Source of the DNA: an uncultured Eubacteriales bacterium
GTDB taxonomy: Bacteria > Bacillota > Clostridia > Oscillospirales > Oscillospiraceae
Length of the DNA: 17,004 nucleotides
Assembly: GCA_900554625.1 (NCBI GenBank)
Contig: USHP01000009.1
Span: forward strand, 1 to 17,004
Direction: 5' to 3'
Positions 395-17,004 of the stretch are shown here, in pieces. Positions within the stretch are counted from its first letter, which is position 1. The number at the start of each line of letters is the position of its first letter. A model generated the notes under the pieces. It worked only from the letters and a program-made list of their open reading frames with translations. It searched no databases and was not told the origin of the DNA. Made by a program: the position numbers and the translations under genes.

Positions 395-2224
395 CTATCT
401 ATACAGAGGACCGTAGGTAGCACAGGCGCGGTAATCCTGGCCTTCCTTGTCCATGCCAAATGCATTCCAGCAGGCAGGGCGATAAATATCATCCAGAGGA
501 ACGTTGTGCATGCAGACAGGGATTCTCAGCATGGAACACATGGTGATCAGGTCAGCACCGATGTGGCCATAGGAGATGGCACCGTGGTTGGCACCCCAAT
601 TCATCATAACCTCGTATGCGGTCTTGAAGGGAGAGCCTTCCTTGCCATCACAGCGGGGTGCAAACCAAGTGCAGGGCCAGGTGGGGTTGGTACGCTCCAT
701 CAGTGTATCGGAAACCTCGTCAGGCAGGTTGACGGTCCAGCCTTCGGCAATCTGTAGCACAGGGCCCAGGCCCTTGACCAGATTCATACGGATCATGGTG
801 CAGGGCATTTCGGCCTTAGTGGTGTAGTGGCTGGAGAAGCCGCCGCCACGGAAGTTATCCTGACCAGCTTCGCACCAGACAGTAGCTTCGGTCATCTTCT
901 TGATATCTTCCTCGGTGACTTCCCACCAACGCTTCATAGTGGCATCGCCGTTTTCGTCAGTGCAGACACCGGAGGCATCCAGACAGGCAGCACCGGAGTT
1001 CAGCAGATGGATGATACCGTTGGACTCAGCAGCCTTGCCTTCCAGCTTGTAGCCGGTGACACGCTCGGTAGCTTCGCCAGACCAGTAGGTACGAACGTCA
1101 GCGAAAATCTGAGCACGGTGGGTCACCAGACGCATCATCAGCATGCTCATACCGTTGAGAATATCGTTTTCAGTAGCCAAGGTGTATGGCTCACGGGCAC
1201 CTTCATAGTCGAAGGAGGAACTCAGAAGAGCTTCTGGGTAGTCGCAGTTGGGCCAATGGTCGGTCCACTGACGCTGACCCTGGAAGCCACCTACGATGGC
1301 ATTGTGACCAACCTTTTCTTCCTCGAACTTATCGGGCAGATTGGGGTTGCCAGCCATCAGGTCCTTGATGATGCAGTACATCTTAACGGTAAACTCCCAC
1401 TGCTTTTCCTTTTCCTCGGGAGTAAACTTGATGCGCACGGTTTCGCCCAGGAATTCAACTTCCTCGGGGTTATCATCGCGACCTTCCTTGCAGTGCTCCT
1501 TGGTCCAGGCCAGCGCCTTCAGGTATTCTTCCTCGTTATAGATACCTTCTTCCATGCGGCGCAAAATCTCAACCTCATCCACGGACTCCACGCGCATACC
1601 GAAATACTCTTCCAGCATGCTCTGGTCCATAATGGAACCGGCAATACCCATGCACTGGGAACCAATCTGCAAGTAAGACTTACCACGCATGGTGGCAACA
1701 GCGACAGCAGCACGGCCAAAGCGCAGCAGCTTATCCTTCACATCTTCGGGCATCTGGGTGACCTGATCCCGGTCCTGAACCTCATGACCGTAGATACCGA
1801 AAGCGGGAAGGCCCTTCTGTGCATGACCGGCCAAAACAGCAGCCAGATACACAGCGCCGGGACGCTCGGTGCCATTGAAGCCCCAAACACCCTTAATGGT
1901 GTGGGGATCCATATCCATAGTCTCGGAGCCGTAGCACCAGCAGGGAGTGACGGACAGGGTGATGGCTACACCTTCCTTCTTGAACTTATTGGCGCAGGCA
2001 GCGGCTTCAGGCACACGGCCGATGCAGGTGTCAGCCATAACAACCTTTACGGGTTCACCGTTGGAGTAGAACAGATTCTCCTCGAACAGCTTCTTGGCAG
2101 ACTCGGCCATTGCCCAAACAAGAGGTTCCAGAGATTCACGCATCATCTGAGGGCCACGGCGGCCATCAACGATGGGGCGAATACCGATTACGGGATAATC
2201 ACCAACATATCTGTTTTTTGCCAT
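395..2224 (-). CDS. fucI: L-fucose isomerase FucI
   Basis: This 609-residue protein matches the FucI family (E. coli FucI is 591 residues) from end to end. It interconverts L-fucose and L-fuculose in the cytoplasm with Mn2+, the first step of fucose catabolism. The family metal ligands are in place: Glu352 in ATEND, Asp376 in FADVRTYW, and His547 in WGANHG. Their spacing matches E. coli Glu337, Asp361 and His528. The C-terminal GQDYRAC and YGPLY motifs are also typical. A GAAAGGAG Shine-Dalgarno site precedes the ATG. It is the last gene of the minus-strand cluster, 38 bases after the kinase stop. Codons are strongly biased (GGT, GCT, ATC, CTG, AAG preferred), suggesting high expression. No convincing terminator was found in the about 70 bases between its stop and the MerR remnant. 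L-arabinose or other aldoses may be side substrates, as in some family members. Confidence 0.96.
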   Translation of the reverse strand: MAKNRYVGDYPVIGIRPIVDGRRGPQMMRESLEPLVWAMAESAKKLFEENLFYSNGEPVKVVMADTCIGRVPEAAACANKFKKEGVAITLSVTPCWCYGSETMDMDPHTIKGVWGFNGTERPGAVYLAAVLAGHAQKGLPAFGIYGHEVQDRDQVTQMPEDVKDKLLRFGRAAVAVATMRGKSYLQIGSQCMGIAGSIMDQSMLEEYFGMRVESVDEVEILRRMEEGIYNEEEYLKALAWTKEHCKEGRDDNPEEVEFLGETVRIKFTPEEKEKQWEFTVKMYCIIKDLMAGNPNLPDKFEEEKVGHNAIVGGFQGQRQWTDHWPNCDYPEALLSSSFDYEGAREPYTLATENDILNGMSMLMMRLVTHRAQIFADVRTYWSGEATERVTGYKLEGKAAESNGIIHLLNSGAACLDASGVCTDENGDATMKRWWEVTEEDIKKMTEATVWCEAGQDNFRGGGFSSHYTTKAEMPCTMIRMNLVKGLGPVLQIAEGWTVNLPDEVSDTLMERTNPTWPCTWFAPRCDGKEGSPFKTAYEVMMNWGANHGAISYGHIGADLITMCSMLRIPVCMHNVPLDDIYRPACWNAFGMDKEGQDYRACATYGPLYR

Positions 2225-2262
2225 TATAGAGAGACTCCTTTCGAGATTTGATTACTTGGAGT

Positions 2263-3681
2263 TTATTTGCCAATGACGTCACAGAAGATACGATACTTTT
2301 CATCCAGTGCATCAATCTTCTGGGGATAATAAGTAGTTACCTTTTCTGTTTTGCGGATCAGCTTCCGGCCTTCAGCTACATTCTTGATTGCGCCAAGGGC
2401 GATCAACTGAAGCATGATGTTGCCCAGAGCAGTTGCTTCCGTGGGACCTGCAACAACGCTGAAACCCAGAGCATCTGCGGTCATCTGGCACAGGAACGTA
2501 TCCTTGGTGCCGCCGCCCAGCAGATGCAGAACCTCAAATTTCTTGCCGGTGTTCTCCTGGATCTGGGCAATGGCATAGCGGTACTTCATGGAAAGGCTTT
2601 CATAAATGCAACGCACCAAGGCACCATCGATCTGAGGAATATTCTGTCCGGTATTTTCACAGTAAGCACGAATCTTCTCAGGCATCCCACCGGGTTGTGC
2701 AAATTCGGGAGCATCCGGATCAATGAAGCAGGTGAACGCAGGCTCCTTACGGGCCAGCTGTTCCATGTCATTGTAGGAGTATTCTTTGCCTTCAGCACGA
2801 AAGTTTCTGCGGATTTCCTGAATGAGCCAAAGTCCGCTGATGTTTTTTAGGTAGTTGATCTGTCCGTTGGCACCGATTTCGTTGGACAACTCATCTTCCA
2901 TACTCTTTTTCGTAAGAATAGGCTTGTCCAGCTCGCATCCAATCAAAGACCATGTGCCGCAAGACAGAAAGGCGGCTTCTCCAATACCATCCCAGGGCAT
3001 AGCCGCAACAGCGCACTGGGTGTCATGTCCGGCGACCTTCACTACAGGAATTCCCTTGTACTCACCGCATTCGGTCGCACAGTCCACAATTTTAGGAAAG
3101 AATGTAACTGGGAACGGTGTCAGCGCCGTAATGTTATGATCCCAGTTTCCGGTCACCGGATTCACCATCTGAGAGGTGGATGCAATCGTCTTGTCCACGG
3201 TACGGCTTCCGCACAAGGCCCATGCAAACAAATCCGGCATAAACAACATACATGCGGATTCCAGTCTTTTTCCCTTTTCCGTCATCAGCTGGAAGATCGT
3301 ATTGATAGGCATAATCTGATTGCCTGTAGCATGATACAGCTTTTCGGGAGTAATCTCATTGAATACCTGTTCCGGTACACCATTGGTTCTGGGGTCTCGG
3401 TAATTTGTCGGCAAACTCATCAGGTAGTCATTCGCTGTAATCATGCCATAGTCTACACCCCAAGTGTCAAAAGCAAGCGAATCCACTTTTCCGCAGGATG
3501 CAACAGTGTTTTCTACTTCTTTCAGCAGCGATAAGAAATCCCAGGCTATCCGCCGATTCTCTCTAAGCGGTACATTATCAAAGCGACGAATCTCCTCATA
3601 ACTGATTTTCTTTCCATCGAAATGGCCTAAAACTGCTCTGCCAGTAGATGCACCAAAATCAAATGCCAAAACAGTGTTCAT
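2263..3681 (-). CDS. fucK: FGGY-family sugar kinase, probable L-fuculokinase (RhaB-like)
   Basis: A 472-residue FGGY carbohydrate kinase, expected to phosphorylate L-fuculose to L-fuculose 1-phosphate with ATP. Visible motifs are the N-terminal phosphate-binding loop FDFGASTGR (residues 7-15), a WGVDYG motif near 74-79, the likely catalytic Asp220 in AGHDT, the CGTWSL motif (241-246) and the ATP-site GGGTK (389-393). The GTWSL and FFPK features and the length look more like rhamnulokinase (RhaB) than E. coli FucK, but FucI and FucA as neighbours and no rhamnose isomerase point to fuculose. RhaB-like kinases serving fucose are known in gut Clostridia such as Roseburia. A start two codons upstream exists, but it abuts the AAGGAGGA site with no spacing. 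The ATG at 3681 sits six bases from it and overlaps the fucA stop as TGATG, implying translational coupling. Confidence 0.88.
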   Translation of the reverse strand: MNTVLAFDFGASTGRAVLGHFDGKKISYEEIRRFDNVPLRENRRIAWDFLSLLKEVENTVASCGKVDSLAFDTWGVDYGMITANDYLMSLPTNYRDPRTNGVPEQVFNEITPEKLYHATGNQIMPINTIFQLMTEKGKRLESACMLFMPDLFAWALCGSRTVDKTIASTSQMVNPVTGNWDHNITALTPFPVTFFPKIVDCATECGEYKGIPVVKVAGHDTQCAVAAMPWDGIGEAAFLSCGTWSLIGCELDKPILTKKSMEDELSNEIGANGQINYLKNISGLWLIQEIRRNFRAEGKEYSYNDMEQLARKEPAFTCFIDPDAPEFAQPGGMPEKIRAYCENTGQNIPQIDGALVRCIYESLSMKYRYAIAQIQENTGKKFEVLHLLGGGTKDTFLCQMTADALGFSVVAGPTEATALGNIMLQLIALGAIKNVAEGRKLIRKTEKVTTYYPQKIDALDEKYRIFCDVIGK

Positions 3682-4397
3682 CAACATTCCTCCTTCTTAT
3701 GGAGGATTGGATCATCAGGATTGAATACCTTATAGCCCGGATGCCGACCAGTGATGCGGTAGTAGCTTCTCAGGTCGATCAGCTTTTGTATGTTAGGACG
3801 GCTGATGTCGATGCTGCCACCTAAGATAACCGCATTGATAGTGATTTTTGCCCACAGTTCCAGGCTCTCCATCCGGTAAAAAGCTGTGATGACATCGCTT
3901 CCCACTGCCAATGCACCATGATTTTCCAGCAGCATCACATCATGCTCCCGAAGATAAGGCTCGATGGCATCGGGAACCTCAGAAGTAGATGGGGTCCCAT
4001 AGGGAGTCAGCGGCACAGAACCGATGGCTGCCACATCCTCAATCATGTTGTACATATCCATAGCCTTGTGGGCAACCGCAAAACCTGTCGCTCCAGGAGG
4101 ATGTGCATGGATTACACTTTTTACATCCGGGCGCTTGTCATAGCAGCGCAGATGCATCTTGATCTCACTGGAAGGCCGCAAACCGGGAGCTGCCTCCAGA
4201 ACGTTGCCCTGGCGGTCAATGCGAATCAGCTTTTCCGGGGTGATGAAGGATTTGCTCATTCCTGTAGGCGTTGCAAGGATGGTACCATCGTCCAGCATCG
4301 CGGATACATTTCCATCATTTGCTGCAACCCATCCAAGCTGCCACATTTTGTGACAGACGTCACATATCTGTTCTTTATACAAATTAATATCACTCAT
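3681..4397 (-). CDS. fucA: L-fuculose-phosphate aldolase (class II aldolase)
   Basis: A 238-residue zinc-dependent class II aldolase/adducin-family protein. It cleaves L-fuculose 1-phosphate to dihydroxyacetone phosphate and L-lactaldehyde. The zinc and catalytic residues are visible: Glu78 in PSSE, His97 and His99 in HAHP, and His160 in ENHG. All four are offset by exactly five from E. coli FucA Glu73, His92, His94 and His155. The NDGNVS phosphate-binding segment lies at 28-32. The protein is slightly longer than E. coli FucA (215), with a C-terminal extension ending in a Lys/Glu-rich tail. An alternative ATG at 4403 is only three bases from the GGAGG site (4407-4411). The ATG at 4397 has a nine-base spacer and is preferred. 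Eight bases overlap the upstream GH109-like gene, and the stop overlaps the kinase start, so the three genes form a tight translational unit. Confidence 0.93.
   Translation of the reverse strand: MSDINLYKEQICDVCHKMWQLGWVAANDGNVSAMLDDGTILATPTGMSKSFITPEKLIRIDRQGNVLEAAPGLRPSSEIKMHLRCYDKRPDVKSVIHAHPPGATGFAVAHKAMDMYNMIEDVAAIGSVPLTPYGTPSTSEVPDAIEPYLREHDVMLLENHGALAVGSDVITAFYRMESLELWAKITINAVILGGSIDISRPNIQKLIDLRSYYRITGRHPGYKVFNPDDPILHKKEEC
3688..3695 (-). promoter_or_regulatory. Shine-Dalgarno AAGGAGGA within the fucA end, for the kinase
   Basis: The site lies within the last fucA codons (KKEEC). It is six bases from the ATG at 3681 and directly abuts the earlier ATG at 3687, so the later start is preferred. 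The TGATG overlap with the fucA stop suggests re-initiating ribosomes. Confidence 0.75.
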
Positions 4398-5592
4398 TGG
4401 CATTCGCCTCCGCAGTTTTTTCCTTGAAATTGGGGATTTTAACCGGCATACCGCCTGATGCTATGGAAATCTCAGAAAGCGGCGTGATACACATAATCGT
4501 TGCTGCATCATATACATCAATCGGCATCGGTTCCCCAGAGCGAATATGGTCAAAGAAATCGCGATAGCAAAGGTAGTCCATTCCGCCATGCCCTGCTGCG
4601 CGCTCTTCCTCTGTTATCGAAGCCCATATAGGATGATTATATTCCTTAGCATATTGATCTGCATTTCCCCACTGCTCTTTCCACTCGAAGTCACAATCAT
4701 TATGGGTTCCATCAATAAACACTGAGTCGTTTACTTCCGTGTACATACCCTTTGTCCCACGGACGGTAAAACCTCTGCTATACGGCCTCGGTAATGTTGT
4801 GTCCAAAGTAATGGTTATGGTCTCGCCACCGGCACAGGTAATCACGGTGGTTACGATGTCACCCTGCGCGAATTTAGCCTCACACAGTTCCTCGTTTTCC
4901 GGTTGATGCTTCAAGCAATACTCATGAAGGCCAACCGATTTGGAAGCAGTACTACTGAGTGTCATCAGTTGGTTAGAGTGATTAATATCGAGAATCTTCA
5001 TAATCGGTCCCATTTCATGAGATGGATAGTTCTCACAATTGCGGGAGAGATATTCGTTCAGTCGATAATGTCTGTTTTCTTTTCCGGTTGTGATTTCTTC
5101 TCGTAAATCGTGACAGTATCCACCGGAACAGTGAACGATCTGGCCAAACAAGCCCATCCGGACCATATTCAGTACCATCAGTTCCCGTTGACCGTAATTG
5201 CAGTTTTCCAGGAACATATACGGTGTACCGGTTCTCTCTTGGGTTCTGACAAGCTGGTAGCACTCTTCTACTGTATAGGCACCGCCGACTTCACTTCCCA
5301 CCGGAATGCCTTGCTCCATACAGTAGGTCACCACCTCTGTATGGTATTTCCATGAGGTGATTACAATCACGCAGTCAACCAGATTCTTGTTTACCAGCTT
5401 TTTGTAATCAGTCGTTTCATATGGGCGTTTATGACCCGCGTTTTCTATCAGATCCGCTACACGCTCAACACGGTCCTGATAAATATCGCAGACAGCCGTA
5501 ATTCTAATGTCATCCATTTTAAGAAACACTTGGTTTGTCAGCCCATATCCACGCAAGCCAAGGCCAATGATGCCTACACGAATTTGTTCCAT
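4390..5592 (-). CDS. Gfo/Idh/MocA protein resembling GH109 NAD-dependent alpha-N-acetylgalactosaminidase
   Basis: A 400-residue protein with an N-terminal NAD-binding Rossmann fold (IIGLGLRG, residues 8-15) and a C-terminal Gfo/Idh/MocA domain. Several segments are those I associate with GH109 glycosidases rather than ordinary dehydrogenases: TVEECYQLV (107-115), LENCNY (128-133), YPSHEMGPI (189-197, matching the GH109 YPTHxxGP motif whose Tyr and His are catalytic in the Elizabethkingia enzyme), PRPYSR (269-273) and HGGMDY (335-340). GH109 enzymes remove terminal alpha-GalNAc using NAD+ in a redox-assisted mechanism. There is no signal peptide, so it would act in the cytosol on an imported glycan. 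The start has a GGGAG site seven bases upstream. The gene follows a strong hairpin and overlaps fucA by eight bases. It could instead be a sugar dehydrogenase, or a redox glycosidase of another specificity. Confidence 0.8.
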   Translation of the reverse strand: MEQIRVGIIGLGLRGYGLTNQVFLKMDDIRITAVCDIYQDRVERVADLIENAGHKRPYETTDYKKLVNKNLVDCVIVITSWKYHTEVVTYCMEQGIPVGSEVGGAYTVEECYQLVRTQERTGTPYMFLENCNYGQRELMVLNMVRMGLFGQIVHCSGGYCHDLREEITTGKENRHYRLNEYLSRNCENYPSHEMGPIMKILDINHSNQLMTLSSTASKSVGLHEYCLKHQPENEELCEAKFAQGDIVTTVITCAGGETITITLDTTLPRPYSRGFTVRGTKGMYTEVNDSVFIDGTHNDCDFEWKEQWGNADQYAKEYNHPIWASITEEERAAGHGGMDYLCYRDFFDHIRSGEPMPIDVYDAATIMCITPLSEISIASGGMPVKIPNFKEKTAEANANE

Positions 5593-5619
5593 ACAGATAC
5601 TCCCAACTATATAGGATGC

Positions 5620-5652
5620 AAAAAGGAGCGGGGCAAAGCCCCGCCCCCTCTT
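5620..5652 (-). terminator. GC-rich hairpin with T-run between binding-protein gene and GH109-like gene
   Basis: On the minus strand a stem with core GCGGGGC / GCCCCGC (5644-5638 and 5634-5628), a TTT loop and further G-C, G-U and A-U pairs is followed directly by a TTTTT run (5624-5620). This has the form of an intrinsic terminator. As it sits inside the cluster, partial readthrough probably lowers expression of the catabolic genes relative to the binding protein, or the hairpin protects the upstream mRNA end. No clear second promoter is seen between it and the GH109-like ATG. Confidence 0.7.
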
Positions 5653-5678
5653 TCATTGCATAAAGGACATTGATTGAA

Positions 5679-7256
5679 TTAGTTCAGTTCGTTGAATGCG
5701 ATTGCCTGCTCATGCAGAGCCTCGTAAACCTTGTCAGCACCGGCTGCGGTCATCTTATCTCTCAGCTTTGCAATATCGCCAGCAGGATCCTCGGTGAAGC
5801 CCAGGCCCAGCAGCTTATACTCGTTGTTGAAGATCTCGCCCATTGCAGCGATCTCATTCTTAACCTCGCTGTCATCAAAGACGAAGGTCTGGTAACGGCT
5901 GCTACGTGCAGTCTCCTGCCAGATAGCAGTCAGCTCGCTCAGGTTGGGGATACCACCCTCAACAACACGCCAGTTAGCATCGTTACGGACGCCCCAGTTG
6001 CAGTTGCCGTCATAGGGATAGTTGACGCTGTCAGGCAGGGGAACCAGTGCATTGTCGCCAACTGCTTCCCAATGCTTGCCTTCAATACCATAGCAGAACA
6101 GGCTGTTGATTTCTGGATCATTACGCAGGTAATCCAGAGCCATCAGAGCGCGTTCGGGGTTCTTGGACTTAGAGAAGATGCTCATGCCGTTTGCCAGATA
6201 GGAATTCAGAACAGGAGGTGCACCATCCTGTGCGTCAAACACGCGGACATCCCACTCAGGATGCTCGGTAGCCAGCTGTGCGTACAGGCTCTTGGCGGTG
6301 TTCACGTTGCACAGAGCCAGAGCGGACTTACCAGCCAGGAAGGACTCAGTGTTATTCTGGGTGTTAACAACAGCGTTCTTGCTCCAGAAGCCGCGATCCT
6401 TCCAATCCTTCAGACGGGTGATCACATCCAGGAATGCAGCCTGATCGTAGTTGCCCTTAACATCTGCGTTGTCATCAACTCCGCTGACGCTAGCCATGGA
6501 CTGCCAGGGGCCAATGCTGATAACCTTCTCTTCAGATTCCCAGTTTGCCTTTGCCCACATACGGTCATAGACGAACAGCTTATCGTAGTCAGAACCAACA
6601 TCCAAAGGAATGAGGGTGGGTTCGTTGTCAACGATAGCCTGCATGTAAGCCTCAGCCTCATCCAGAGAAGCGACAGACTTGATATCGTACTTGTCCATTA
6701 GGTCGCCACGGGCAATCCAAACGTAGGAAGTGATTTCCTTGTAGTTCATGGGCATCATGTAGACCTTACCATCAACCTTGGCCTCTTCCCAAGCCTCGGG
6801 ATACATGGTGGCTGCGCTCATGGGTGCGTAGGTTTCCAGCGCTTCCTGGGTGATTTCCCAGAAGCCCTGTTTGGTGGCCTGAGAGTTGTAGAAGCACCAG
6901 TCAGCAGTATAGATGATGTCCCACTCCTCGCCGGAAGCAAAAATCAGAGGATACTTCTGCTCATACTCACCCCAGCTCATGAACTTCACTTCGATGGTGG
7001 CATTGATTTCTGCCTTCAGCTTTTCGTTGATCTTTGCGAAAACCTCGTCATTGTCAACGGGACGATCACCGATCAGGTACATAGTCAAGGTTACTTCTTC
7101 CAGGGTTTCGGATTCTGCCTCAGTGACATCATCCTTAGGTGCATCAGTCTTGGTAGGTTCACCAGTGGTAGGATCAGCAGCAGGAGCATCGTTGCCGCAA
7201 GCAACCAGACCCAAAACCATAACCAAGGCCAACAGCATTGCAATAAGTTTTTTCAT
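5679..7256 (-). CDS. Sugar ABC transporter substrate-binding lipoprotein
   Basis: A 525-residue extracellular solute-binding protein of the large LipO/YtcQ type, with a C-terminal region like DUF3502. The N-terminus MKKLIAMLLALVMVLGLVAC is a lipoprotein signal with lipobox LVAC and lipidated Cys20, followed by an acidic and Thr/Pro-rich linker. It should capture an oligosaccharide at the outer membrane face and pass it to the two permeases. A longer reading starts at 7274, but a perfect AAGGAGGA site (7264-7271) lies inside that extension, seven bases before the ATG at 7256, which is therefore the start. Codon use is strongly biased, as expected for an abundant binding protein. A GC-rich hairpin follows the stop. 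The ligand is not readable from sequence; the neighbours suggest a fucosylated host glycan. Confidence 0.9.
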   Translation of the reverse strand: MKKLIAMLLALVMVLGLVACGNDAPAADPTTGEPTKTDAPKDDVTEAESETLEEVTLTMYLIGDRPVDNDEVFAKINEKLKAEINATIEVKFMSWGEYEQKYPLIFASGEEWDIIYTADWCFYNSQATKQGFWEITQEALETYAPMSAATMYPEAWEEAKVDGKVYMMPMNYKEITSYVWIARGDLMDKYDIKSVASLDEAEAYMQAIVDNEPTLIPLDVGSDYDKLFVYDRMWAKANWESEEKVISIGPWQSMASVSGVDDNADVKGNYDQAAFLDVITRLKDWKDRGFWSKNAVVNTQNNTESFLAGKSALALCNVNTAKSLYAQLATEHPEWDVRVFDAQDGAPPVLNSYLANGMSIFSKSKNPERALMALDYLRNDPEINSLFCYGIEGKHWEAVGDNALVPLPDSVNYPYDGNCNWGVRNDANWRVVEGGIPNLSELTAIWQETARSSRYQTFVFDDSEVKNEIAAMGEIFNNEYKLLGLGFTEDPAGDIAKLRDKMTAAGADKVYEALHEQAIAFNELN

Positions 7257-7263
7257 TTGTATT

Positions 7264-7271
7264 TCCTCCTT
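7264..7271 (-). promoter_or_regulatory. Shine-Dalgarno AAGGAGGA that fixes the binding-protein start
   Basis: This perfect site lies seven bases before the ATG at 7256, and inside the longer open frame beginning at 7274. It shows that the six extra N-terminal residues are not translated and that the lipoprotein signal starts with MKKL. Confidence 0.85.
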
Positions 7272-7282
7272 CATTTTTATAA

Positions 7283-7300: not shown

Positions 7301-8215
7301 CTACCCTTTTACTGCGCCAATGGTGACGCCTTTCACGAAGTACTTCTGCAAGAACGGATACAGCAGAATAATCGGTCCTGTTGCAACTACTGTCATAGCC
7401 AGCTTCAGCGGTTCACTGGGAACGTCGCTTGCCGGTATGCCACTGCGGGCAGCCGCTGCATTCATAGCCTGCGCTTTCGTCAGGATATTGTTCAGGTAAT
7501 ACTGAAGCGGGTACAATTCCCGGCTTCCCTCATCCAGAAACAGCATCGCATTATACCAGTCATTCCAATAGTTCAGTGCCAAGAACAGGCCAACGGTTGC
7601 CAGACCCGCTTTGGAAAGTGGCAGTGCGATCTTGAAGAAAATCGTCAGATCGTTTGCGCCGTCCAGTCTTGCAGATTCATATAGCGATGTTGGTATGCTC
7701 ATCATATAACTTTTTAGAATCAACATATAAGTCACATTGATCATGATCGGCAGAATCATGGAAATGACGTTGTTGTGGAAATGCAGATACTTTGTACAGA
7801 AAATGTACCAGGGGACCAGGCCGCCGCCGAATATTGACGTGAAATAGAAGAAAAAGGACACTTGATAGCGGTACCGAAAATCGGGACTGGCCAACACATA
7901 GGCAGCCATACTGGTAAAGAACAAGCCTACCGTCGTTCCCGTAAATGTAACAAAAATTGTTACACCGTAGGCTCTCACGATTTCCTCCGGAATACGGAAC
8001 AGCATCTTATAGGCATCCAGTGAAAATGTCTCCGGGATCAACTGGTAGCCATGAAGCTGAATCGCATATTGCTCTGTAAAAGATCCACTGATAACCAACA
8101 GGAAAGGCAGTAAGCATACTGCTGCAAGAACAGCAAGAAAAACATAAGATATCACATTGAAAATAATTCTATCTTTGCCAAGAGGCATCTTGCTTTGATT
8201 CGTATATTTTGCCAT
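7301..8215 (-). CDS. Carbohydrate ABC transporter permease (UgpE/YtcP type)
   Basis: A 304-residue inner-membrane permease of the MalG/UgpE/YtcP class. Hydrophobic segments are visible near residues 22-43, 84-109, 117-139, 149-168, 203-217 and 272-290. The cytoplasmic coupling loop, which docks the ATPase, reads YESARLDGAND (179-189), a good EAA motif. The protein ends in GVTIGAVKG, a common C-terminus for this class. A GAGAGGGGG ribosome-binding site precedes the ATG. It is 31 bases downstream of the partner permease gene and 44 bases before the binding-protein gene. No ATPase gene is present in the window, so a shared MsmK/UgpC-type ATPase encoded elsewhere is expected. Confidence 0.92.
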   Translation of the reverse strand: MAKYTNQSKMPLGKDRIIFNVISYVFLAVLAAVCLLPFLLVISGSFTEQYAIQLHGYQLIPETFSLDAYKMLFRIPEEIVRAYGVTIFVTFTGTTVGLFFTSMAAYVLASPDFRYRYQVSFFFYFTSIFGGGLVPWYIFCTKYLHFHNNVISMILPIMINVTYMLILKSYMMSIPTSLYESARLDGANDLTIFFKIALPLSKAGLATVGLFLALNYWNDWYNAMLFLDEGSRELYPLQYYLNNILTKAQAMNAAAARSGIPASDVPSEPLKLAMTVVATGPIILLYPFLQKYFVKGVTIGAVKG

Positions 8216-8246: not shown

Positions 8247-9173
8247 TCAGAACAGCGCGTAATCCGGTTCTACTTTCTTAACACACCAGTTAGCAAACAG
8301 AACCAAAGCGAAGGACAAACCAGACTGATAAAGACCTGCCGCACTCGTCATGCCAAATTCCTGAAGATCCAGCAACGACCGGTTCACATATGTATCAATC
8401 ACGTCGGTAACTTCCAGGACCATCGGGTTATTACCGGTAACCTGCCAGAACATCTGGAAGTCACCCTTCATAATCGTACCAATCGCCATCAGGAACAGGA
8501 TTACGATTGTAGGCCGGATACACGGCAGTGTAATGTGCCAGATTTTTTGCCACATGGTTGCTCCGTCAAGATCAGCTGCCTCATACAGGTGCTCGTCTAT
8601 GTTGACGATACTGGCAAGATACATAACTGTACCATAACCGACATTTTTGAAAGCACTGACTGCGATCAGTATAAAAGGCCATGCACCCTTATTTGAGTAA
8701 ACATCAATTGGTTCAACACCAATGCTCTTCAGGAACGTATTCACGGCGCCGAACTCATAATTGAACATGTTGTATATGAATGCACCGACAACAACCCAGG
8801 AAATAAAATAAGGGAAGAACATAACGGACTGGGTGATTCTCTTAAAGAATTTACCCGCCAGTTCACTCAGCATGATCGCACAGGTGATCTGCAGAACTGT
8901 ATTAACACAAAGGAACGCGATATTGTACAGAACTGTATTACGAGTGGTAATCCAAGCCTTGCCTGATTTGAAAAAGTATTCAAAATTTACAAAACCGACC
9001 CAAGGACTTCCAAAGATTCCGTCGTAATAATTAAATTCTTTGAACGCAAGAACAATTCCTGCCATGGGGATATAACACATCAGGATTACAACGATTGCTG
9101 CCGGGAGAACCATAAGCCATTTAATTCGGTTATCCCTCAGGTCACGTAACAATGGATTTCTTCTCTTTGTCAT
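8247..9173 (-). CDS. Carbohydrate ABC transporter permease (LplB/UgpA type)
   Basis: A 308-residue permease of the LplB/UgpA/YteP class and the first gene of the minus-strand cluster. About six membrane segments are visible: near 18-43, 82-104, 115-137, 166-188, 218-236 and 280-298. The EAA loop reads YEAADLDGATMWQ (197-209), followed by the TLPCIRP stretch typical of this class. A strong AAGGGGGG ribosome-binding site sits six bases before the ATG. With the second permease it forms the heterodimeric channel for the oligosaccharide bound by the lipoprotein at 5679-7256. The about 200-base region upstream contains the operon promoter and candidate operators. The order permease-permease-binding protein is the usual one for the LplB-YtcP-LipO group. 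Confidence 0.93.
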   Translation of the reverse strand: MTKRRNPLLRDLRDNRIKWLMVLPAAIVVILMCYIPMAGIVLAFKEFNYYDGIFGSPWVGFVNFEYFFKSGKAWITTRNTVLYNIAFLCVNTVLQITCAIMLSELAGKFFKRITQSVMFFPYFISWVVVGAFIYNMFNYEFGAVNTFLKSIGVEPIDVYSNKGAWPFILIAVSAFKNVGYGTVMYLASIVNIDEHLYEAADLDGATMWQKIWHITLPCIRPTIVILFLMAIGTIMKGDFQMFWQVTGNNPMVLEVTDVIDTYVNRSLLDLQEFGMTSAAGLYQSGLSFALVLFANWCVKKVEPDYALF

Positions 9174-9216
9174 TGTGTACCCCCCTTATGGAAACACTTT
9201 GTCCTTCGTTGTTTTT

Positions 9217-9245
9217 ATCTTAACAAACACCCGCGGGAATTACAA
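9217..9245 (-). promoter_or_regulatory. Predicted promoter of the transport and fucose operon
   Basis: Read on the minus strand, a TTGTAA -35 box (9245-9240) and a TAAGAT -10 box (9222-9217) are separated by exactly 17 bases. Each matches the sigma-70 consensus at four of six positions. It lies about 45 bases upstream of the first permease gene. Weak boxes with a correct spacer fit a promoter that needs an activator such as the adjacent AraC-type regulator. This is a prediction by eye. Confidence 0.45.
9230..9237. promoter_or_regulatory. CCCGCGGG palindrome within the operon promoter spacer
   Basis: A perfect 8-base GC palindrome lies between the -35 and -10 boxes of the predicted minus-strand promoter, in otherwise AT-rich sequence. 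That location suits a repressor operator or altered spacer geometry. No specific regulator is recognised, and chance occurrence is possible. Confidence 0.3.
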
Positions 9246-9310
9246 CGGGACGAAATTACGAAAGGGGGACTAAATTATGTTGTTTTCTCGTTTTCAGGTG
9301 TTTCCAATCA

Positions 9311-9329
9311 AAATACTATTGAAGTATTT
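9311..9329. promoter_or_regulatory. Inverted repeat overlapping the regulator promoter -35 box
   Basis: AAATACT (9311-9317) and AGTATTT (9323-9329) form a perfect 7-base inverted repeat around a 5-base centre. The repeat covers the predicted -35 box at 9319-9324. This position is typical of an operator where a dimeric regulator would block or assist polymerase. The protein that binds is not identifiable from the sequence. Confidence 0.4.
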
Positions 9330-9347
9330 CGATTTTTTGTATATTAT
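9319..9347 (+). promoter_or_regulatory. Predicted promoter of the regulator and glycosidase operon
   Basis: TTGAAG (9319-9324) and TATTAT (9342-9347) are separated by 17 bases and match the -35 and -10 consensus at four and five of six positions. The response-regulator ATG lies about 33 bases after the -10 box. An 8-base palindrome TATCGATA (9345-9352) overlaps the -10 end. No other promoter is evident before the downstream genes, so this one may serve the whole plus-strand operon. Confidence 0.5.
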
Positions 9348-9380
9348 CGATACAGACATAGAATTGGGAGATGATCAATT

Positions 9381-10484
9381 ATGAACTTCACTGTATTGAT
9401 CGCGGACGACGAAAGTATGCCCAGATCTGTCCTAAAAGAGCATCTGCCATGGGACAAGCTTTCTGTCACTCAGGTAATTCTTGCATCAGATGGATTGGAA
9501 GCCCTGGAACAGTCCAAAGCCCACCATCCCGACATTATTATCAGTGATATGAAAATGCCCCATCTTAACGGTCTGGAACTGGCTGCCGCGGTAAGAGATT
9601 TTTTGCCTTCCTGCCAGTTTATCTTTCTGAGTGGCTATACGGACAAAGAATATCTGAAGGGTGCCATCAAATTAAAAGCTGCCAGCTATGTGGAAAAGCC
9701 CATTGATCTGGATGAAATCACAGATGCAATCCGCGAAGTTGTCGCCGATCTGCAGCGTGAATTTATAGCTGATCCAAAGTTCCTTTTCTTCCGTGGTGAG
9801 TCTCAGAACACTGAGGCATTAAATTCGCAGGAGTATCTTTGCGACAAATCCTTGCTCCGGCAGTTGGAAAACAATATCCGCCAGGTTAAGCAAGATGACA
9901 CACTCCTCATGCTGAACACCATGCTTTCTGACATCAAAGAATGTGAGGGCACGTCTCCTGATTATATCAGACATTTATACAGGCAGATTATCTTCATGTT
10001 TTTGCATGCTGCAGAAAGCCAGAATATACAGAGTATCATCAGTCAGACTGATTCACTTCTATACACCGGCGCAAAGCAGCCAACCCTGAATCAGCTTTGG
10101 GATACCCTTTTACAAACAGCACATATCTATTTCTCATCCCTGCTCAGCTCCGACCTGGATATTACCAGCAAGGTTGACCGTTTCTTGGAAAAGAACTACT
10201 GCAATGCGGCACTGACCGTTCAGGAAGTCGCAGACACCCTGGGTTTCACCTATACATACCTGTGTTCTGCCTATAAGAAAAGCTGCGGTAAGACAGTTAA
10301 TCAGAGGCTGACAGAAATTCGTGTACAAAATGCCAAGGAGCTGCTCACATCCACAAACAAGAAGCTCCATGAGGTTGCCAATGCTGTGGGATATGCAGAT
10401 GGCAAGTACTTTGTAAAGGTATTTACCCGGGAGACAGGTTTGTCCCCGAAGCAATACCGTGAGAGGCAAGCTTATGAAGAATAA
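9381..10484 (+). CDS. Response regulator with AraC-type DNA-binding domain (YesN-like)
   Basis: A 367-residue two-component response regulator. The N-terminal receiver domain (about 1-122) has the acidic pair Asp9-Asp10, phospho-acceptor Asp56 in IIISDMKMP, Ser84 and Lys106 in VEKP. The C-terminal domain (about 263-365) is an AraC/XylS pair of helix-turn-helix motifs: LTVQEVADTLGFTYTYL and LHEVANAVGYADGKYF, the latter followed by the FTRETGLSPKQYR signature. A central linker of about 140 residues is typical of YesN-type regulators. It most likely activates the divergent transport and fucose operon and its own operon from the 9174-9380 region. The Shine-Dalgarno site (GGGAG) is ten bases from the ATG, longer than usual. 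The stop overlaps the sensor-kinase start by 11 bases, so the pair is co-translated. Confidence 0.94.
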   Translation: MNFTVLIADDESMPRSVLKEHLPWDKLSVTQVILASDGLEALEQSKAHHPDIIISDMKMPHLNGLELAAAVRDFLPSCQFIFLSGYTDKEYLKGAIKLKAASYVEKPIDLDEITDAIREVVADLQREFIADPKFLFFRGESQNTEALNSQEYLCDKSLLRQLENNIRQVKQDDTLLMLNTMLSDIKECEGTSPDYIRHLYRQIIFMFLHAAESQNIQSIISQTDSLLYTGAKQPTLNQLWDTLLQTAHIYFSSLLSSDLDITSKVDRFLEKNYCNAALTVQEVADTLGFTYTYLCSAYKKSCGKTVNQRLTEIRVQNAKELLTSTNKKLHEVANAVGYADGKYFVKVFTRETGLSPKQYRERQAYEE

Positions 10485-12279: not shown

Positions 12280-12294
12280 GAAAGGAGCTTTGTT

Positions 12295-13869
12295 ATGCGT
12301 TTATCCACATTTACGGATACGGATTGGCTGTATCCGGACTCTGAACACAGCAGCCAAACAGAGATAATTCTTGATGCTGTATGCGGTGGACATGCCGGTG
12401 CACAGATTCTGGGTGATACCCTTCCCTCAGAAGCGGTTGTCCAATTCCGTTGGAATGATTCTGATGGGCCGGATGTTCAGCTTTTCCAGTTACTCCCGGT
12501 GGGGGTAAACGAGAACACGTCCCCCACTCTTATGACAACGACGGACTACGAAAGCTGCTGTGCATTTGTCACCCGGAAAGCACCATTTGATGTTTATGAT
12601 GCCTTACGCCCGGCTGATGGTACAATTCCCGCAGGCGGTAGACTGGCCCTGTATCTGTGCATTGATGTTCCACAGCAAGTGGAAGCGAGAGCATACCATG
12701 GTATGCTTTCCGTAAGTATTGCCGCCATCGAACACACAATCCCTGTAACCTGTACAGTTCACGCATTAACCGTTCCCAAGCTAGCAGAAGCCAAACTGGG
12801 TATGCTCAACTTCTTTGACTATGATGGCCTTGCAACACAACACGATGTAAAAAAGAACAGTCCCGAATACTGGGAGCTGTTCCGTCAATATGTACGGGCT
12901 CAAATTCAGATGCACTGTACCCATATTCTATTGCCTGCCGGTGAGGCAATTATCCAGGATGGTTCCGTAATCGGATTTGATTTTTCAGCAGCAGAGCGCG
13001 CTGGCCAGATTGCCTGGGAAGAAGGCGCTGAAAAACTTTGCGGCGGTCATATTGCTCACTGGCATGAGTGGGATGACTGCGAATACTACCCCAACTGGAA
13101 TCAGACTTTGGGCATTACCTCACCACAGGGTTATCTGCAGATGCGGTTATACTTCTCCCAATGGGCAGAGATTATCAAACGAAACCGCTGGGAAGATTGC
13201 ATGACTCAGGCGTTAGCAGACGAGCCCCAGACTCATAACGACCGTACATACCGTATCCTGGCAGCCATGTGTCGAAAGTTCCTGCCGAATATCCCCATTA
13301 TTGATGCAGTGGAAACCACAAATCTGGGCGGGGGCATTGATATTTGGGTTCCTAAACAGGATACATACGAAAAGTGGCGTGATGAATACGAGATCCTAAA
13401 AGCTGCAGGAGAAGAAATGTGGTTTTATACCTGCGCTTTCCCTGCAGGTCCTGCCATGAACAGAAGCATGGATCTGCCGCTGACTGTCAGTCGGGTTGTG
13501 CTTTGGATGGGTGCGTATTACCGTTTGTCGGGTTTCCTCCACTGGGGATTCAATTACTACATTGGTGATGATATTTGGCACAGTGCCTGCTGTCCTCACA
13601 AGGGCGCGCTGCTCCCGGCTGGCGACGCACACATTGTATATCCCGGTGCAGAAGGTCCCTGGCGCAGTATGCGCTTTGAGGCGCAAAGAGCTGGCGCAGA
13701 AGATTTTGAATTGCTGGTTCAAGCTCTCGAGATTGCACCAGCACAAACAGAAGAAATCATCCGTTCTGTCTGCACCGACTTCAGGAATTATACACGCAAC
13801 GGTTCCGATGTGATCTCTGCCAGACTGAAACTGATTCGCTTACTTGAGGAGGCAAAGGCCAATGGCTAA
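12295..13869 (+). CDS. GH123/DUF4091-family glycoside hydrolase, candidate beta-N-acetylgalactosaminidase
   Basis: A 524-residue protein with the layout of DUF4091/GH123 enzymes. An N-terminal beta-sandwich (about 1-165) contains a GG-x-L-x-LYLCIDVP stretch and a YHGMLSV segment. A TIM-barrel-like region (about 166-450) and a C-terminal helical segment with GPWRSMRFEAQRAGAED follow. GH123 enzymes use a neighbouring Asp-Glu pair for substrate-assisted cleavage of beta-GalNAc; here Asp309-Glu310 in LADEPQ is the obvious candidate. Aromatic barrel motifs WHEWDD (256-261) and LHWGFNYY (415-422) would line the sugar site. No signal peptide is present, so it should act in the cytosol. AAAGGAG lies seven bases before the ATG, 15 bases after the kinase stop. 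Eight bases overlap the fucosidase gene. Family membership is fairly secure; the substrate is inferred. Confidence 0.8.
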   Translation: MRLSTFTDTDWLYPDSEHSSQTEIILDAVCGGHAGAQILGDTLPSEAVVQFRWNDSDGPDVQLFQLLPVGVNENTSPTLMTTTDYESCCAFVTRKAPFDVYDALRPADGTIPAGGRLALYLCIDVPQQVEARAYHGMLSVSIAAIEHTIPVTCTVHALTVPKLAEAKLGMLNFFDYDGLATQHDVKKNSPEYWELFRQYVRAQIQMHCTHILLPAGEAIIQDGSVIGFDFSAAERAGQIAWEEGAEKLCGGHIAHWHEWDDCEYYPNWNQTLGITSPQGYLQMRLYFSQWAEIIKRNRWEDCMTQALADEPQTHNDRTYRILAAMCRKFLPNIPIIDAVETTNLGGGIDIWVPKQDTYEKWRDEYEILKAAGEEMWFYTCAFPAGPAMNRSMDLPLTVSRVVLWMGAYYRLSGFLHWGFNYYIGDDIWHSACCPHKGALLPAGDAHIVYPGAEGPWRSMRFEAQRAGAEDFELLVQALEIAPAQTEEIIRSVCTDFRNYTRNGSDVISARLKLIRLLEEAKANG

Positions 13870-15157
13870 CACCAAATGGTTCGAAGATGCCCGATTCGGA
13901 ATGTTTATCCATTGGGGTCTTTACGCGGTCCACGGGAAAGGTGAATGGCATGCTAGCATTGCCAAAATCACACCCGAGCGGTATGACCAGTATTTTGAAA
14001 CCTTTGACCCCATTGACTACAACCCGAGGATCTGGGCTCGAATGGCAAAAGAGGCCGGAATGAAATATGCGGTTCTCACCACGAAGCACCACGAGGGTTT
14101 CTGCCTGTTTGACTCAGCCTATACAGACTACAAAGCTACCAATACCCCTGCCGGTCGAGATCTGGTTCGGGAATATGTGGAGGCATTCCGGGAGGAAGGC
14201 ATCCGTGTAGGATTATATTACTCTCTCGTAGACTGGCATCATCCGGACTACCCCGCATATCAGGATCCATTCCATCCGCTTCGGGGCGATCCCAGAAGGA
14301 AAGATGAGAAGTGCGATTTCAATCGGTATCTCGACTATATGCATAATCAAGTGCGTGAGCTCTGCACGAATTACGGAAAGATCGATCTGCTGTGGTTTGA
14401 TTTCTCCTACGATGAATTCTGTGGAGAAGGCTGGCGCGCAAATGAATTGGTGAAAATGGTCCGATCTCTCCAGCCTGATATTCTGATTAACAGCCGTCTG
14501 GAAGCCAGCGGCGGGTCCTTAGGTAGTCTGTTAACAGATTCTCCCACAACCTGGTCCGGAGATTTTGCCAATCCTGAGCAGATTATTCCCCCTGCGCCAT
14601 TAACAAGGCCGGATGGCATACCCATTTGTTGGGAGGCCTGCCAAACAATGAACAACAGCTTTGGCTATACAGACGCAGACAGAAACTTCAAGTCTGCAAA
14701 GACCTGCATTCATCAGTTGGTGAACTGCGTATCCAAGAACGGAAATTATCTGTTGAATGTCGGACCCGATGCACGCGGAAACATCCCTCCCCAGTCCAGA
14801 AAAATTCTGGAGGAGATCGGAGACTGGATGCACTTGAATTCGGAAAGCATTTATGGCTGCCATGCCAGCTCCACAAGTATTGACTCCTTTGGCTGCCGTA
14901 TCACTGAAAAGGATCATGTTATTTACCTTCATGTAATGGAGCAGCCGGTAGGACCTCTTGCTCTGACCGGCATCCATAACAGCCAAATTAAAGCTGCAAG
15001 ATTCCTTGGAACCGGTGCAGAAGCAGAAGTATTAACCAACGGATGGGCTGTGCAAAACTATCCCACCATCACCTTTATCAGTCTGGCAGGTCAATCTAAT
15101 GAAACCATTGCCCTTCCGGACGAAAGAGATACTGTCATCAAGCTGATCCTAAACTAA
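13862..15157 (+). CDS. GH29 alpha-L-fucosidase, cytosolic
   Basis: A 431-residue retaining alpha-L-fucosidase. Family GH29 features are ARFGMFIHWG (10-19), HGKGEW (24-29), TTKHHEGF (73-80), the nucleophile Asp180 in LLWFDFS, and the SKNGNYLLNVGPDARG segment close to the end of the catalytic barrel. A short C-terminal beta domain follows. There is no signal peptide, unlike many secreted GH29 enzymes, so it would release L-fucose from imported oligosaccharides and feed FucI directly. A TTG start at 13844 would add six residues, but GAGGAGG lies nine bases before the ATG at 13862. That ATG overlaps the upstream stop by eight bases. The linkage (alpha-1,2, 1,3, 1,4 or 1,6) and the acid/base residue cannot be settled by eye. 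Codon use is unbiased compared with the following gene. Confidence 0.95.
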   Translation: MANTKWFEDARFGMFIHWGLYAVHGKGEWHASIAKITPERYDQYFETFDPIDYNPRIWARMAKEAGMKYAVLTTKHHEGFCLFDSAYTDYKATNTPAGRDLVREYVEAFREEGIRVGLYYSLVDWHHPDYPAYQDPFHPLRGDPRRKDEKCDFNRYLDYMHNQVRELCTNYGKIDLLWFDFSYDEFCGEGWRANELVKMVRSLQPDILINSRLEASGGSLGSLLTDSPTTWSGDFANPEQIIPPAPLTRPDGIPICWEACQTMNNSFGYTDADRNFKSAKTCIHQLVNCVSKNGNYLLNVGPDARGNIPPQSRKILEEIGDWMHLNSESIYGCHASSTSIDSFGCRITEKDHVIYLHVMEQPVGPLALTGIHNSQIKAARFLGTGAEAEVLTNGWAVQNYPTITFISLAGQSNETIALPDERDTVIKLILN

Positions 15158-15181
15158 TTATCACGAAAGGAATCAGATATC

Positions 15182-17004
15182 ATGAGCAAATCGAATCTAA
15201 CCGGTAGAGTTACCATTCCCACCGACCTGGACGTGGTTCCCCAGACCCTGGAGATCATGAAGCGCTGGGGCGCCGATGCCATCCGTGACTGCGACGGCAC
15301 CGATTTCCCCGCAGAACTGAAGGATCTGGACGCCAAAATCTACTCCACCTACTACACCACCCGGAAAGACAATGCCTGGGCCAAGGCCAATCCCGATGAA
15401 GTGCAGCAGTGCTACATCATGACCGGCTTCTATACCGCCTCTGAGGGTGCTCTGTCCATCCCCCTGATGAAGGGCATCTCTCCGGAACTGATGGAAGTCA
15501 ACACCCGTGACGACATCAAGCGCTGGTGGGAGGTTATGGACAGAACCACCGGTCAGCCTCTGAGCACCGACGAATGGCGCTACGACAGCGAAACAGGCTG
15601 CGTGGTGATTGACAAGCCCCAGGCTTTCCACGAGTATACCGTGGCCTTCCTGGCTTACCTGATCTGGGACCCGGTGCACATGTACAACGCTGTGACCAAC
15701 AACTGGCAGAACTTCGAGCACCAGATCACCTTTGACGTCCGCCAGCCCAAGACCCACAAGTTCACCATGGAGCGGCTGCGCAAGTTCATTGCCGACCATC
15801 CTTACGTCAATGTTATCCGCTATACCACCTTCTTCCATCAGTTCACCCTGATGTTTGACGAGCTGAAGCGGGAGAAGTATGTAGACTGGTACGGCTACTC
15901 CGCTTCCGTGTCTCCGTACATCCTGGAGCAGTTTGAGAAGGAAGTGGGCTACAAGTTCCGTCCCGAATTCATCGTGGACCAGGGCTACTACAACAACCAG
16001 TACCGGGTTCCCTCCAAGGAATTCAAGGACTTCCAGGCTTTCCAGCGCTGGGAAGTGGCCAAGCTGGCCAAGGAAATGGTGGACATCACCCACGAGCTGG
16101 GTCTGGAAGCCATGATGTTCCTGGGCGACCACTGGATCGGCATGGAGCCGTTCATGGAAGAGTGGAAGAGCATCGGCATGGATGCCGTGGTTGGCTCCGT
16201 GGGCAACGGCTCTACCCTGCGTCTGATCTCCGATATCCCCGGTGTCAAGTACACCGAAGGCCGGTTCCTGCCCTACTTCTTCCCGGATACCTTCCACGAA
16301 GGCGGCGATCCTGTAAAGGAAGCCAAGGAGAACTGGGTGACTGCCCGTCGGGCCATTCTGCGTAAGCCCATCGACCGGATCGGCTACGGCGGATACCTGA
16401 AGCTGGCCCTGCAGTTCCCCGAGTTTATCGACTACATCGAGTCCGTGTGCAACGAGTTCCGGGAGCTGTACGAGAACATCAAGGGCACCACTCCCTACTG
16501 CGTCAAGACTGTCGCTGTCCTGAACAGCTGGGGCAAAATGCGTGCATGGGGCTGCCACATGGTCCACCACGCCCTGTACCAGAAGCAGAACTATTCCTAC
16601 GCAGGCATCATCGAGGCCCTGTCCGGCGCTCCCTTTGATGTGAAGTTTATCTCCTTCGACGATATCCGCAAGGATCCCAAGATCCTCGACGGCATCGACG
16701 TAATTATCAACGTTGGTGACGGTGATACCGCTCACACCGGCGGTGTTGAATGGGAAGATCCCACCATCAGCGCAGCCATCCGTGGCTTTGTCCATCGGGG
16801 CGGCGGCTTCATCGGCGTGGGCGAGCCCAGTGGCCATCAGTATCAGGGCCACTACTTCCAGCTCGCCTCGGTACTGGGCGTGGAAAAGGAAACGGGCTTC
16901 ACTTTGGGCTATGGCAAGTTCAACCAGGAGGAGCATCCCGACCACTTCCTGCTGGAGGATGCCAGCGAGCCCGTCAACTTCGGTGAGGGCAAGAAGGGTG
17001 TGTA
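15182..17004 (+). CDS. lnpA: GH112 1,3-beta-galactosyl-N-acetylhexosamine phosphorylase, 3' end beyond the window
   Basis: The open frame runs to the window end (607 codons and two bases); the family is about 720-760 residues, so roughly the last 110-150 are missing. It phosphorolyses galacto-N-biose or lacto-N-biose to alpha-Gal-1-phosphate and GalNAc or GlcNAc in the cytosol. Supporting features are the N-terminal GRVTIPTD segment, RWGADAIRDCDGTD (28-41), RYTTFFHQFTL (213-223), and FLGDHWIG (313-320), where Asp316 corresponds to the general acid Asp313 of the Bifidobacterium longum enzyme. The last visible part is the beginning of the glutamine-amidotransferase-like domain (GGGFIGVGEPSG). 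There is no signal peptide. An AAAGGA site lies ten bases upstream of the ATG and the gene follows the fucosidase by 24 bases. Third codon positions are much richer in G and C than in the gene before. Preference for galacto-N-biose over lacto-N-biose cannot be read here. Confidence 0.95.
   Translation, partial: MSKSNLTGRVTIPTDLDVVPQTLEIMKRWGADAIRDCDGTDFPAELKDLDAKIYSTYYTTRKDNAWAKANPDEVQQCYIMTGFYTASEGALSIPLMKGISPELMEVNTRDDIKRWWEVMDRTTGQPLSTDEWRYDSETGCVVIDKPQAFHEYTVAFLAYLIWDPVHMYNAVTNNWQNFEHQITFDVRQPKTHKFTMERLRKFIADHPYVNVIRYTTFFHQFTLMFDELKREKYVDWYGYSASVSPYILEQFEKEVGYKFRPEFIVDQGYYNNQYRVPSKEFKDFQAFQRWEVAKLAKEMVDITHELGLEAMMFLGDHWIGMEPFMEEWKSIGMDAVVGSVGNGSTLRLISDIPGVKYTEGRFLPYFFPDTFHEGGDPVKEAKENWVTARRAILRKPIDRIGYGGYLKLALQFPEFIDYIESVCNEFRELYENIKGTTPYCVKTVAVLNSWGKMRAWGCHMVHHALYQKQNYSYAGIIEALSGAPFDVKFISFDDIRKDPKILDGIDVIINVGDGDTAHTGGVEWEDPTISAAIRGFVHRGGGFIGVGEPSGHQYQGHYFQLASVLGVEKETGFTLGYGKFNQEEHPDHFLLEDASEPVNFGEGKKGV

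What the first reader, a model, noticed from the sequence alone, without database searches (positions are those of the whole stretch)
395..17004. Two-armed locus for import and cytosolic dismantling of a fucosylated host glycan
Seen: divergent arms with ABC permeases, binding lipoprotein, fucI/fucK/fucA and a GH109-like gene on one side, and YesN/YesM, GH123-like, GH29 and GH112 on the other. None of the four carbohydrate enzymes has a signal peptide. Known: GH112 acts inside the cell on imported galacto-N-biose or lacto-N-biose in bifidobacteria. Inference: the cell imports an intact fucosylated oligosaccharide and performs all trimming in the cytosol, keeping every sugar to itself. I know of no described Firmicute system with this enzyme set, but I could not search.
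Basis: partly seen in the sequence, partly recalled or inferred. Interest (0 to 1): 0.8.

Follow-up and report, generated by a model that had tools for sequence, protein, structure and literature searches.

The report
Host-glycan import and cytosolic dismantling locus
A bacterium related to gut Clostridia carries two back-to-back gene arms that probably import a capped host sugar chain whole and take it apart inside the cell, using an enzyme of a recently found disaccharide-releasing kind to feed the phosphorylase encoded beside it.

Summary
The anatomy is real: two divergent arms with an ABC importer, YesN/YesM, FucI, a kinase, an aldolase and four signal-less carbohydrate enzymes (GH109, GH123, GH29, GH112). 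What is new is the middle enzyme. By sequence and predicted fold the GH123-like protein belongs to 'Group 3', whose members can release Gal-beta1,3-GalNAc, a GH112 substrate; the natural substrate of the nearest one was not identified. The conserved unit in relatives is importer, YesN/YesM and this GH123 (14 of 17 loci), with conserved DNA between the arms. The gene after the binding protein varies: GH109 here, GH110 in three loci, GH129 in another genome, a second GH123 in four loci. GH112 is in 14 of 16 genomes with the locus, against 77 of 299 in one background family, but beside the locus in only 1 of 17. I read it as a 'galacto-N-biosidase plus phosphorylase' variant of the Roseburia-type system for capped beta-GalNAc host glycans. 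The substrate is inferred, not shown.

The parts
395..2224 (-). L-fucose isomerase FucI
   Evidence: TIGR01089 899.7 bits, above cut-off 850
2263..3687 (-). FGGY sugar kinase, rhamnulokinase-like; L-fuculokinase by context only
   Evidence: TIGR02627 399 bits, below its cut-off 528; fuculokinase model 100 bits
3681..4403 (-). class II aldolase; L-fuculose-1-phosphate aldolase by context
   Evidence: PF00596 3.9e-48; below the cut-off of the 25 NCBIfam models shown
4390..5592 (-). GH109-type alpha-N-acetylgalactosaminidase, no signal peptide
   Evidence: PF21252 1e-59; best PDB 2ixa 6.4e-86, GGY, YP(T/S)H, RPY and GHGG stretches aligned
5679..7256 (-). lipoprotein substrate-binding protein of the ABC importer
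   Evidence: PF12010 2e-13; hydrophobic N-terminus ending in LVAC; best PDB 5swa 3.9e-27, which is NgtS
7301..8215 (-). ABC permease
   Evidence: PF00528 3.6e-9
8247..9173 (-). ABC permease
   Evidence: PF00528 6.4e-15
9174..9380 (.). divergent intergenic region; block at 9242-9267, promoter-like site for the plus arm at 9319-9347
   Evidence: aligned with 15 related intergenic regions; the block occurs once in the window, 0 in 200 shuffles; promoter-like site 1 found against 0.9 in shuffles, so no evidence alone
9381..10484 (+). YesN-type response regulator with AraC-type output
   Evidence: PF00072, PF12833
10474..12279 (+). YesM-type sensor histidine kinase
   Evidence: PF06580, PF00672, PF02518; dCache below cut-off
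12295..13869 (+). GH123 Group 3 beta-N-acetylgalactosaminidase, candidate cytosolic galacto-N-biosidase; DE pair D309/E310
   Evidence: PF13320 1e-31
13862..15157 (+). GH29 alpha-L-fucosidase, no signal peptide (start taken at the ATG; searches used the TTG at 13844)
   Evidence: PF01120 1.2e-91; best PDB 6gn6 6.9e-161
15182..17002 (+). [quoted passage not shown]
   Evidence: TIGR02336 832 bits, cut-off 560.3; best PDB 3wfz 1.7e-191 and 2zus 1.8e-190

Best explanation
This is a nutrient locus of a bacterium related to gut Clostridia. A lipoprotein and two permeases import a host oligosaccharide whole; no ATPase gene was seen in the window. YesM senses the glycan or a product, and YesN acts on a site between the two arms. 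In the cytosol, GH109 takes off an alpha-GalNAc cap (blood group A or Forssman type), GH29 takes off the fucose, and the Group 3 GH123 then cuts the beta-GalNAc bond and releases Gal-beta1,3-GalNAc. GH112 splits that with phosphate into galactose-1-phosphate and GalNAc. FucI, the kinase and the aldolase use the fucose. The most likely glycan ends in (A or H cap)-Gal-beta1,3-GalNAc-beta-, as in type 4 or fucosylated ganglio chains. Shown by sequence: families, gene order, lack of signal peptides, Group 3 kinship, conserved DNA between the arms. Inferred: substrate, order of trimming, disaccharide-releasing mode, YesN site, co-induction.
Against: NgaDssm, the nearest characterised protein, did not act on GA1 or Gb5, and is only 25-27% identical. 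One of three Group 3 ligand residues differs: W204 is F here; H479 and L485 are kept (read from the alignment with a 23-residue numbering offset that I inferred). Group 3 enzymes also release single GalNAc. GH112 lies within the fetched stretch of only 1 of 17 related loci (L013), and 9 of the 10 GH112 stretches read (L052-L061) have a pair of remote permease-like frames of their own, so it may serve free disaccharide. Of 9 genomes with any GH123 hit, 5 have GH112. The two remote hits have none. Cap removers are patchy: GH110 in 5 of 17 genomes, GH109 in 3 of 17 and none of these at the locus. No convincing enzyme that would free glycolipid head groups was found: a weak endoglycoceramidase-type match in 2 of 17.
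Confidence: 0.5

Rival explanations
1. Core-1 decapping. The importer takes up released mucin core-1 glycans. GH109, GH29 and the GH123 work in parallel, each removing a different cap (A, H, and Sda/Cad-type terminal beta-GalNAc), so that all routes end in Gal-beta1,3-GalNAc for GH112. The GH123 then acts as an exo-enzyme.
For: NgaDssm and NgaBa also act on GalNAc-beta-pNP. Sda is abundant on human colonic mucin and was found on core 1 in mouse fecal mucin (PMC12856340, passages). A relative of a solved alpha-N-acetylgalactosaminidase and a sialidase follow the binding protein in G334, and a full GH101 match is in G016.
Against: No sialidase among the genes of the window. In four loci a second, canonical-type GH123 sits in the transporter arm, which suggests that the Group 3 one has another job. 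A convincing GH101 is in 1 of 17 genomes.
Confidence: 0.27
2. A milk-oligosaccharide locus of the Roseburia type: the glycan is fucosylated lacto-N-biose, GH29 and GH112 process it, and the GH123 and GH109 are passengers.
For: Several characterised clostridial GH112 enzymes take both disaccharides (review table PMC8950772, passages). R. inulinivorans has ABC, GH112 and intracellular fucosidases.
Against: The GH123 is the enzyme that goes with this importer (14 of 17 loci; the loci were found through it, so this is partly built in), while GH29 is beside it in 6 and GH112 in 1. No GH136 or GH20 among the 12 genes. Milk oligosaccharides of the lacto-N-biose type lack beta-GalNAc (recalled).
Confidence: 0.12
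3. Another beta-GalNAc polymer or plant/bacterial glycan (chondroitin fragments, exopolysaccharide) is the target, and the fucose genes serve a side chain.
For: The natural substrate of NgaDssm is unknown, and degradation of exopolysaccharides was suggested for disaccharide-releasing enzymes (PMC11087588, discussion).
Against: No lyase, sulfatase or uronidase among the genes of the window. The tested oligosaccharide-releasing enzymes did not act on chondroitin sulfates. GH110, the alpha-GalNAcase relative and the sialidase in relatives point to host caps.
Confidence: 0.08

Closest known systems
Roseburia/Eubacterium HMO utilisation loci (PMC7335108; passages read)
   Same: ABC importer, regulators, GH112 and, in R. 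inulinivorans, intracellular fucosidases; a biosidase supplies the disaccharide for GH112
   Different: They use GH136 lacto-N-biosidase; here a Group 3 GH123 would take that place, with GH109 and fucose catabolic genes; the predicted glycan contains beta-GalNAc. The same paper reports a second R. inulinivorans locus with GH98, GH36 and GH29 for blood group A/B oligomers
GH123 Group 3: NgaDssm and NgaBa (PMC11087588; abstract, passages and sections 7, 10, 12, 13, 16 read)
   Same: Family, DE pair, H479 and L485 equivalents, nearest predicted fold
   Different: 25-27% identity to NgaDssm; W204 is F; NgaBa is archaeal and NgaDssm a deep-sea sequence, without a metabolic pathway assigned in the sections read
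Streptococcus pneumoniae NgtS-P1-P2 N-glycan importer (PMC5215778; passages read)
   Same: Nearest solved binding protein; importer proposed to take up host glycan fragments for processing in the cell
   Different: Weak kinship (3.9e-27); the ligand there is an N-glycan core
[quoted passage not shown] passages read)
   Same: Cytosolic phosphorolysis of the disaccharide
   Different: There free disaccharide is imported; here it would be made inside the cell from a larger glycan

Membership tests
GH123 Group 3 beta-NGA | nearest to NgaDssm by profile and by fold | tested here: met
GH123 Group 3 beta-NGA | catalytic DE pair | tested here: met
   D309/E310 invariant in 25 sequences, aligned to the NgaDssm DE
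GH123 Group 3 beta-NGA | Group 3 ligand residues W204, H479, L485 (named) | tested here: inconclusive
   H and L kept, W is F (alignment; numbering from an inferred offset of 23)
GH123 Group 3 beta-NGA | open -2 subsite without the Group 4 loops | tested here: inconclusive
   strand-2 stretch short in the alignment; the pocket of the model was not measured
GH123 Group 3 beta-NGA | releases Gal-beta1,3-GalNAc | not testable with these tools
   needs an assay
GH112 phosphorylase | TIGR02336 above cut-off, catalytic Asp kept | tested here: met
   832 bits, cut-off 560.3; FLGD stretch aligned to 2zus (role of that Asp recalled)
GH112 phosphorylase | preference for galacto-N-biose over lacto-N-biose | not tested
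   the paper sought was not held
GH109 | GH109 C-terminal domain and active-site stretches | tested here: met
   PF21252 1e-59; alignment to 2ixa (roles of the residues recalled)
GH29 | PF01120 and kinship to solved fucosidases | tested here: met
   linkage specificity not tested
Roseburia-type HMO locus | GH136 lacto-N-biosidase with GH112 | tested here: not met
   none of the 12 genes matches GH136
Roseburia-type HMO locus | ABC importer, regulators, GH112 and signal-less fucosidase together | tested here: met

The most novel reading that the evidence does not exclude
The Group 3 GH123 is a cytosolic galacto-N-biosidase, the beta-GalNAc counterpart of lacto-N-biosidase, working in series with GH112. 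The locus family is a dedicated system in gut Clostridia for importing and dismantling A/B/H-capped glycosphingolipid-type (type 4/ganglio) head groups, with an exchangeable cap-removing gene (GH109, GH110, GH129, second GH123) matched to the host's blood-group-like antigens.
Probability: 0.33. Interest if true: 0.75.

Novelty: new variant of a known kind. Interest (0 to 1): 0.55.

Why it matters
Disaccharide-releasing GH123 enzymes were described in 2024, and the natural substrates of NgaDssm and the Group 1 enzymes were not identified there. This locus offers a partner (GH112), an importer, a regulator and a host setting, so a physiological role becomes testable. If right, it names a group of gut bacteria that feed on capped beta-GalNAc glycans of the host and keep the sugar inside the cell.

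Tried and rejected
The window's own genome could not be used, so its species and the genes beyond position 17004 stay unknown; relatives bear names of Lachnospiraceae, Oscillospiraceae, Fournierella, Ruthenibacterium, Diplocloster and the like (that these live in guts is mostly recalled). The four-enzyme set as a conserved module was rejected. GH112 next to this GH123 as a general rule was rejected (1 of 17). Suppliers of the glycan were sought in 17 genomes: endoglycoceramidase-type domain 2 (25 bits, weak); GH101 4 at E 0.001, 3 over the cut-off, 1 convincing (the G334 one is the GH129-like gene); GH98 1. A promoter scan was no better than shuffles. GH112 preference could not be read from residues (one search failed). 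Many open frames marked '?' look antisense or stayed unassigned and were not counted as genes. L007 and L008 are cut by contig ends; L014 has another importer (34-35% identity). Signal-bearing GH18/SH3 genes near L007, L008 and L010 were set aside as unrelated.

Literature: (GH112, GH29, GH123, fucosyl together) gave 2 papers; of these PMC11323728 was read in passages and the other only as a listing. One search (galacto-N-biose, GH123) gave 3, of which PMC9016705 was seen only as a listing. (any two of DUF4091, phosphorylase, fucosidase, transporter) is no test: 8,433 papers, 10 listed, none of the 10 with DUF4091. Searches were read as listings, apart from the papers named elsewhere. The search tool holds open-licence papers only, so absence of a description holds for in that library alone.
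Full report
What is there. Two divergent arms fill 395-17004. The minus arm runs permease, permease, binding lipoprotein, GH109, aldolase, kinase, FucI; the plus arm runs YesN, YesM, GH123, GH29, GH112, the last one cut by the window end. Neighbouring genes overlap or lie up to 86 bp apart. The four carbohydrate enzymes have no N-terminal hydrophobic stretch, and in-frame stops 5-20 codons upstream leave little room for one. The names fucK and fucA rest on context only.

What is conserved. A genome scan with the GH123 alignment gave 17 loci. Fourteen (L001-L007, L009-L013, L015, L016) show the two permeases and YesN-YesM-GH123 in the same divergent layout; L017 has the same genes rearranged, L008 is cut by its contig, and L014 has another importer. 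The binding protein is seen in 14 of 17 (these without L007, plus L017). GH29 follows in 6 of 17 (L001, L002, L003, L005, L006, L015), and also in G334 (L051). GH112 is within the fetched stretch in 1 (L013, 85% identical), FucI in 1 (L002), kinase, aldolase and GH109 in 0. The divergent intergenic region of the window aligns with 15 others (the 14 loci and L051), with conserved blocks that are weaker in some, L010 for example. The central 26-base block occurs once in the window and in none of 200 shuffles. One YesN site serving both arms is a natural reading, but neither binding nor co-induction was tested.

The variable position. Behind the binding protein, where the window has GH109, L002, L003 and L006 have GH110 (Pfam and PDB for L002; the family model at all three) without a hydrophobic N-terminus, and L005 only a piece of one. 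G334 has a relative of a solved alpha-N-acetylgalactosaminidase (5wzn, 3.2e-136; that this is family GH129 is recalled), then an esterase-like protein and further on GH110 and a sialidase; the esterase-like protein and the sialidase have hydrophobic N-termini. L011, L012, L013 and L016 have a second GH123 of the canonical type (Pfam on L012; 85-95% identical in the other three). L009 has the esterase-like protein (64% identical). In L001, L004, L010, L015 and L017 the frames tested there gave no such enzyme, and the flanks of L007 and L008 end too early. In the 17 genomes searched, GH110 is in 5 and GH109 in 3, none of the latter at the locus. Where present, the swap of A-type and B-type cap removers at one place argues for a host glycan with blood-group-like caps; that GH109 and GH110 act on A and B antigens is recalled.

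Partnership with GH112. Of 16 genomes with the locus that could be searched, 14 hold a GH112 (L005's genome was not held; G003 and G013 lack it; several are draft genomes). Background: 77 of 299 in the family of G014, 26 of 197 in the family of G012, 25 over the cut-off, some of them fragments. Fisher p is 8e-7 against 76 of 298, uncorrected for kinship and for the families that were not sampled. This GH123 is rare: 3 of 299, two of them remote at 234-237 bits and without GH112, and 9 of 197. Of those 9, the four over 700 bits (a cut I made after seeing the scores) all have GH112; of all nine, five do. Nine of the ten GH112 stretches read carry permease-like frames of their own, so in relatives GH112 may mainly serve imported free disaccharide.

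The importer. The nearest solved binding protein is NgtS of S. pneumoniae (3.9e-27), which binds N-glycan fragments and whose transporter is proposed to import them (PMC5215778, passages). The kinship is at family level and does not tell the ligand.

Compared with what is known. PMC7335108 (passages) describes Roseburia loci with ABC importer and GH112, with signal-less GH29 and GH95 in R. inulinivorans (its GH136 being extracellular) and signal-less GH136 lacto-N-biosidase in R. hominis; it also reports uptake and growth of R. inulinivorans on fucosylated oligosaccharides. The general idea of the finding is therefore published for Firmicutes. The window has a Group 3 GH123 where those loci have GH136, and adds GH109 and fucose catabolism. 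brought up no paper whose listing or passages link GH123 and GH112 in one locus; the library is partial.

Rivals. The strongest is that the GH123 acts as an exo-enzyme and all trimming enzymes uncover core-1 Gal-beta1,3-GalNAc (Sda evidence: PMC12856340, passages). Assays on GA1/Gb5 against terminal GalNAc, and ligand binding by the lipoprotein, would decide. My estimates: host-glycan import and cytosolic trimming 0.85; Group 3 membership 0.9; disaccharide-releasing mode feeding GH112 0.5; glycolipid-type substrate about one third.

Noticed in passing
window 39-323: Plus-strand MerR-family regulator fragment (PF13411, 3.1e-10) converging on fucI; its relation to the locus is unknown.
   Followed up: no
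L065 1953-11046 (G334): Extended relative of the locus: alpha-GalNAcase relative, esterase-like (CE2_N) protein, GH110 and a sialidase after the binding protein.
   Followed up: partly
L005 about 2696-3151: Only a partial GH110 match (about 0.3 of the length) at the position where L002, L003 and L006 have a whole one.
   Followed up: partly
L015 910-4829: A transposase-domain frame lies beyond the binding protein, and about 1.7 kb without an assigned gene separates binding protein and permease.
   Followed up: partly
L068 1989-8993 (G016): A separate cluster with two GH29-like frames (34% and 27%), a canonical GH123 and a GH109 (55%) close together, far from the Group 3 locus.
   Followed up: no
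L012 about 20288-21559: A remote GH110-like frame (30% over a third of the length) about 9 kb from the GH123.
   Followed up: no
P0159: A 519-residue database protein listed with a permease domain and a GH109 domain, 75% identical to the window GH109 over 77%; a fusion, deletion or assembly error.
   Followed up: no
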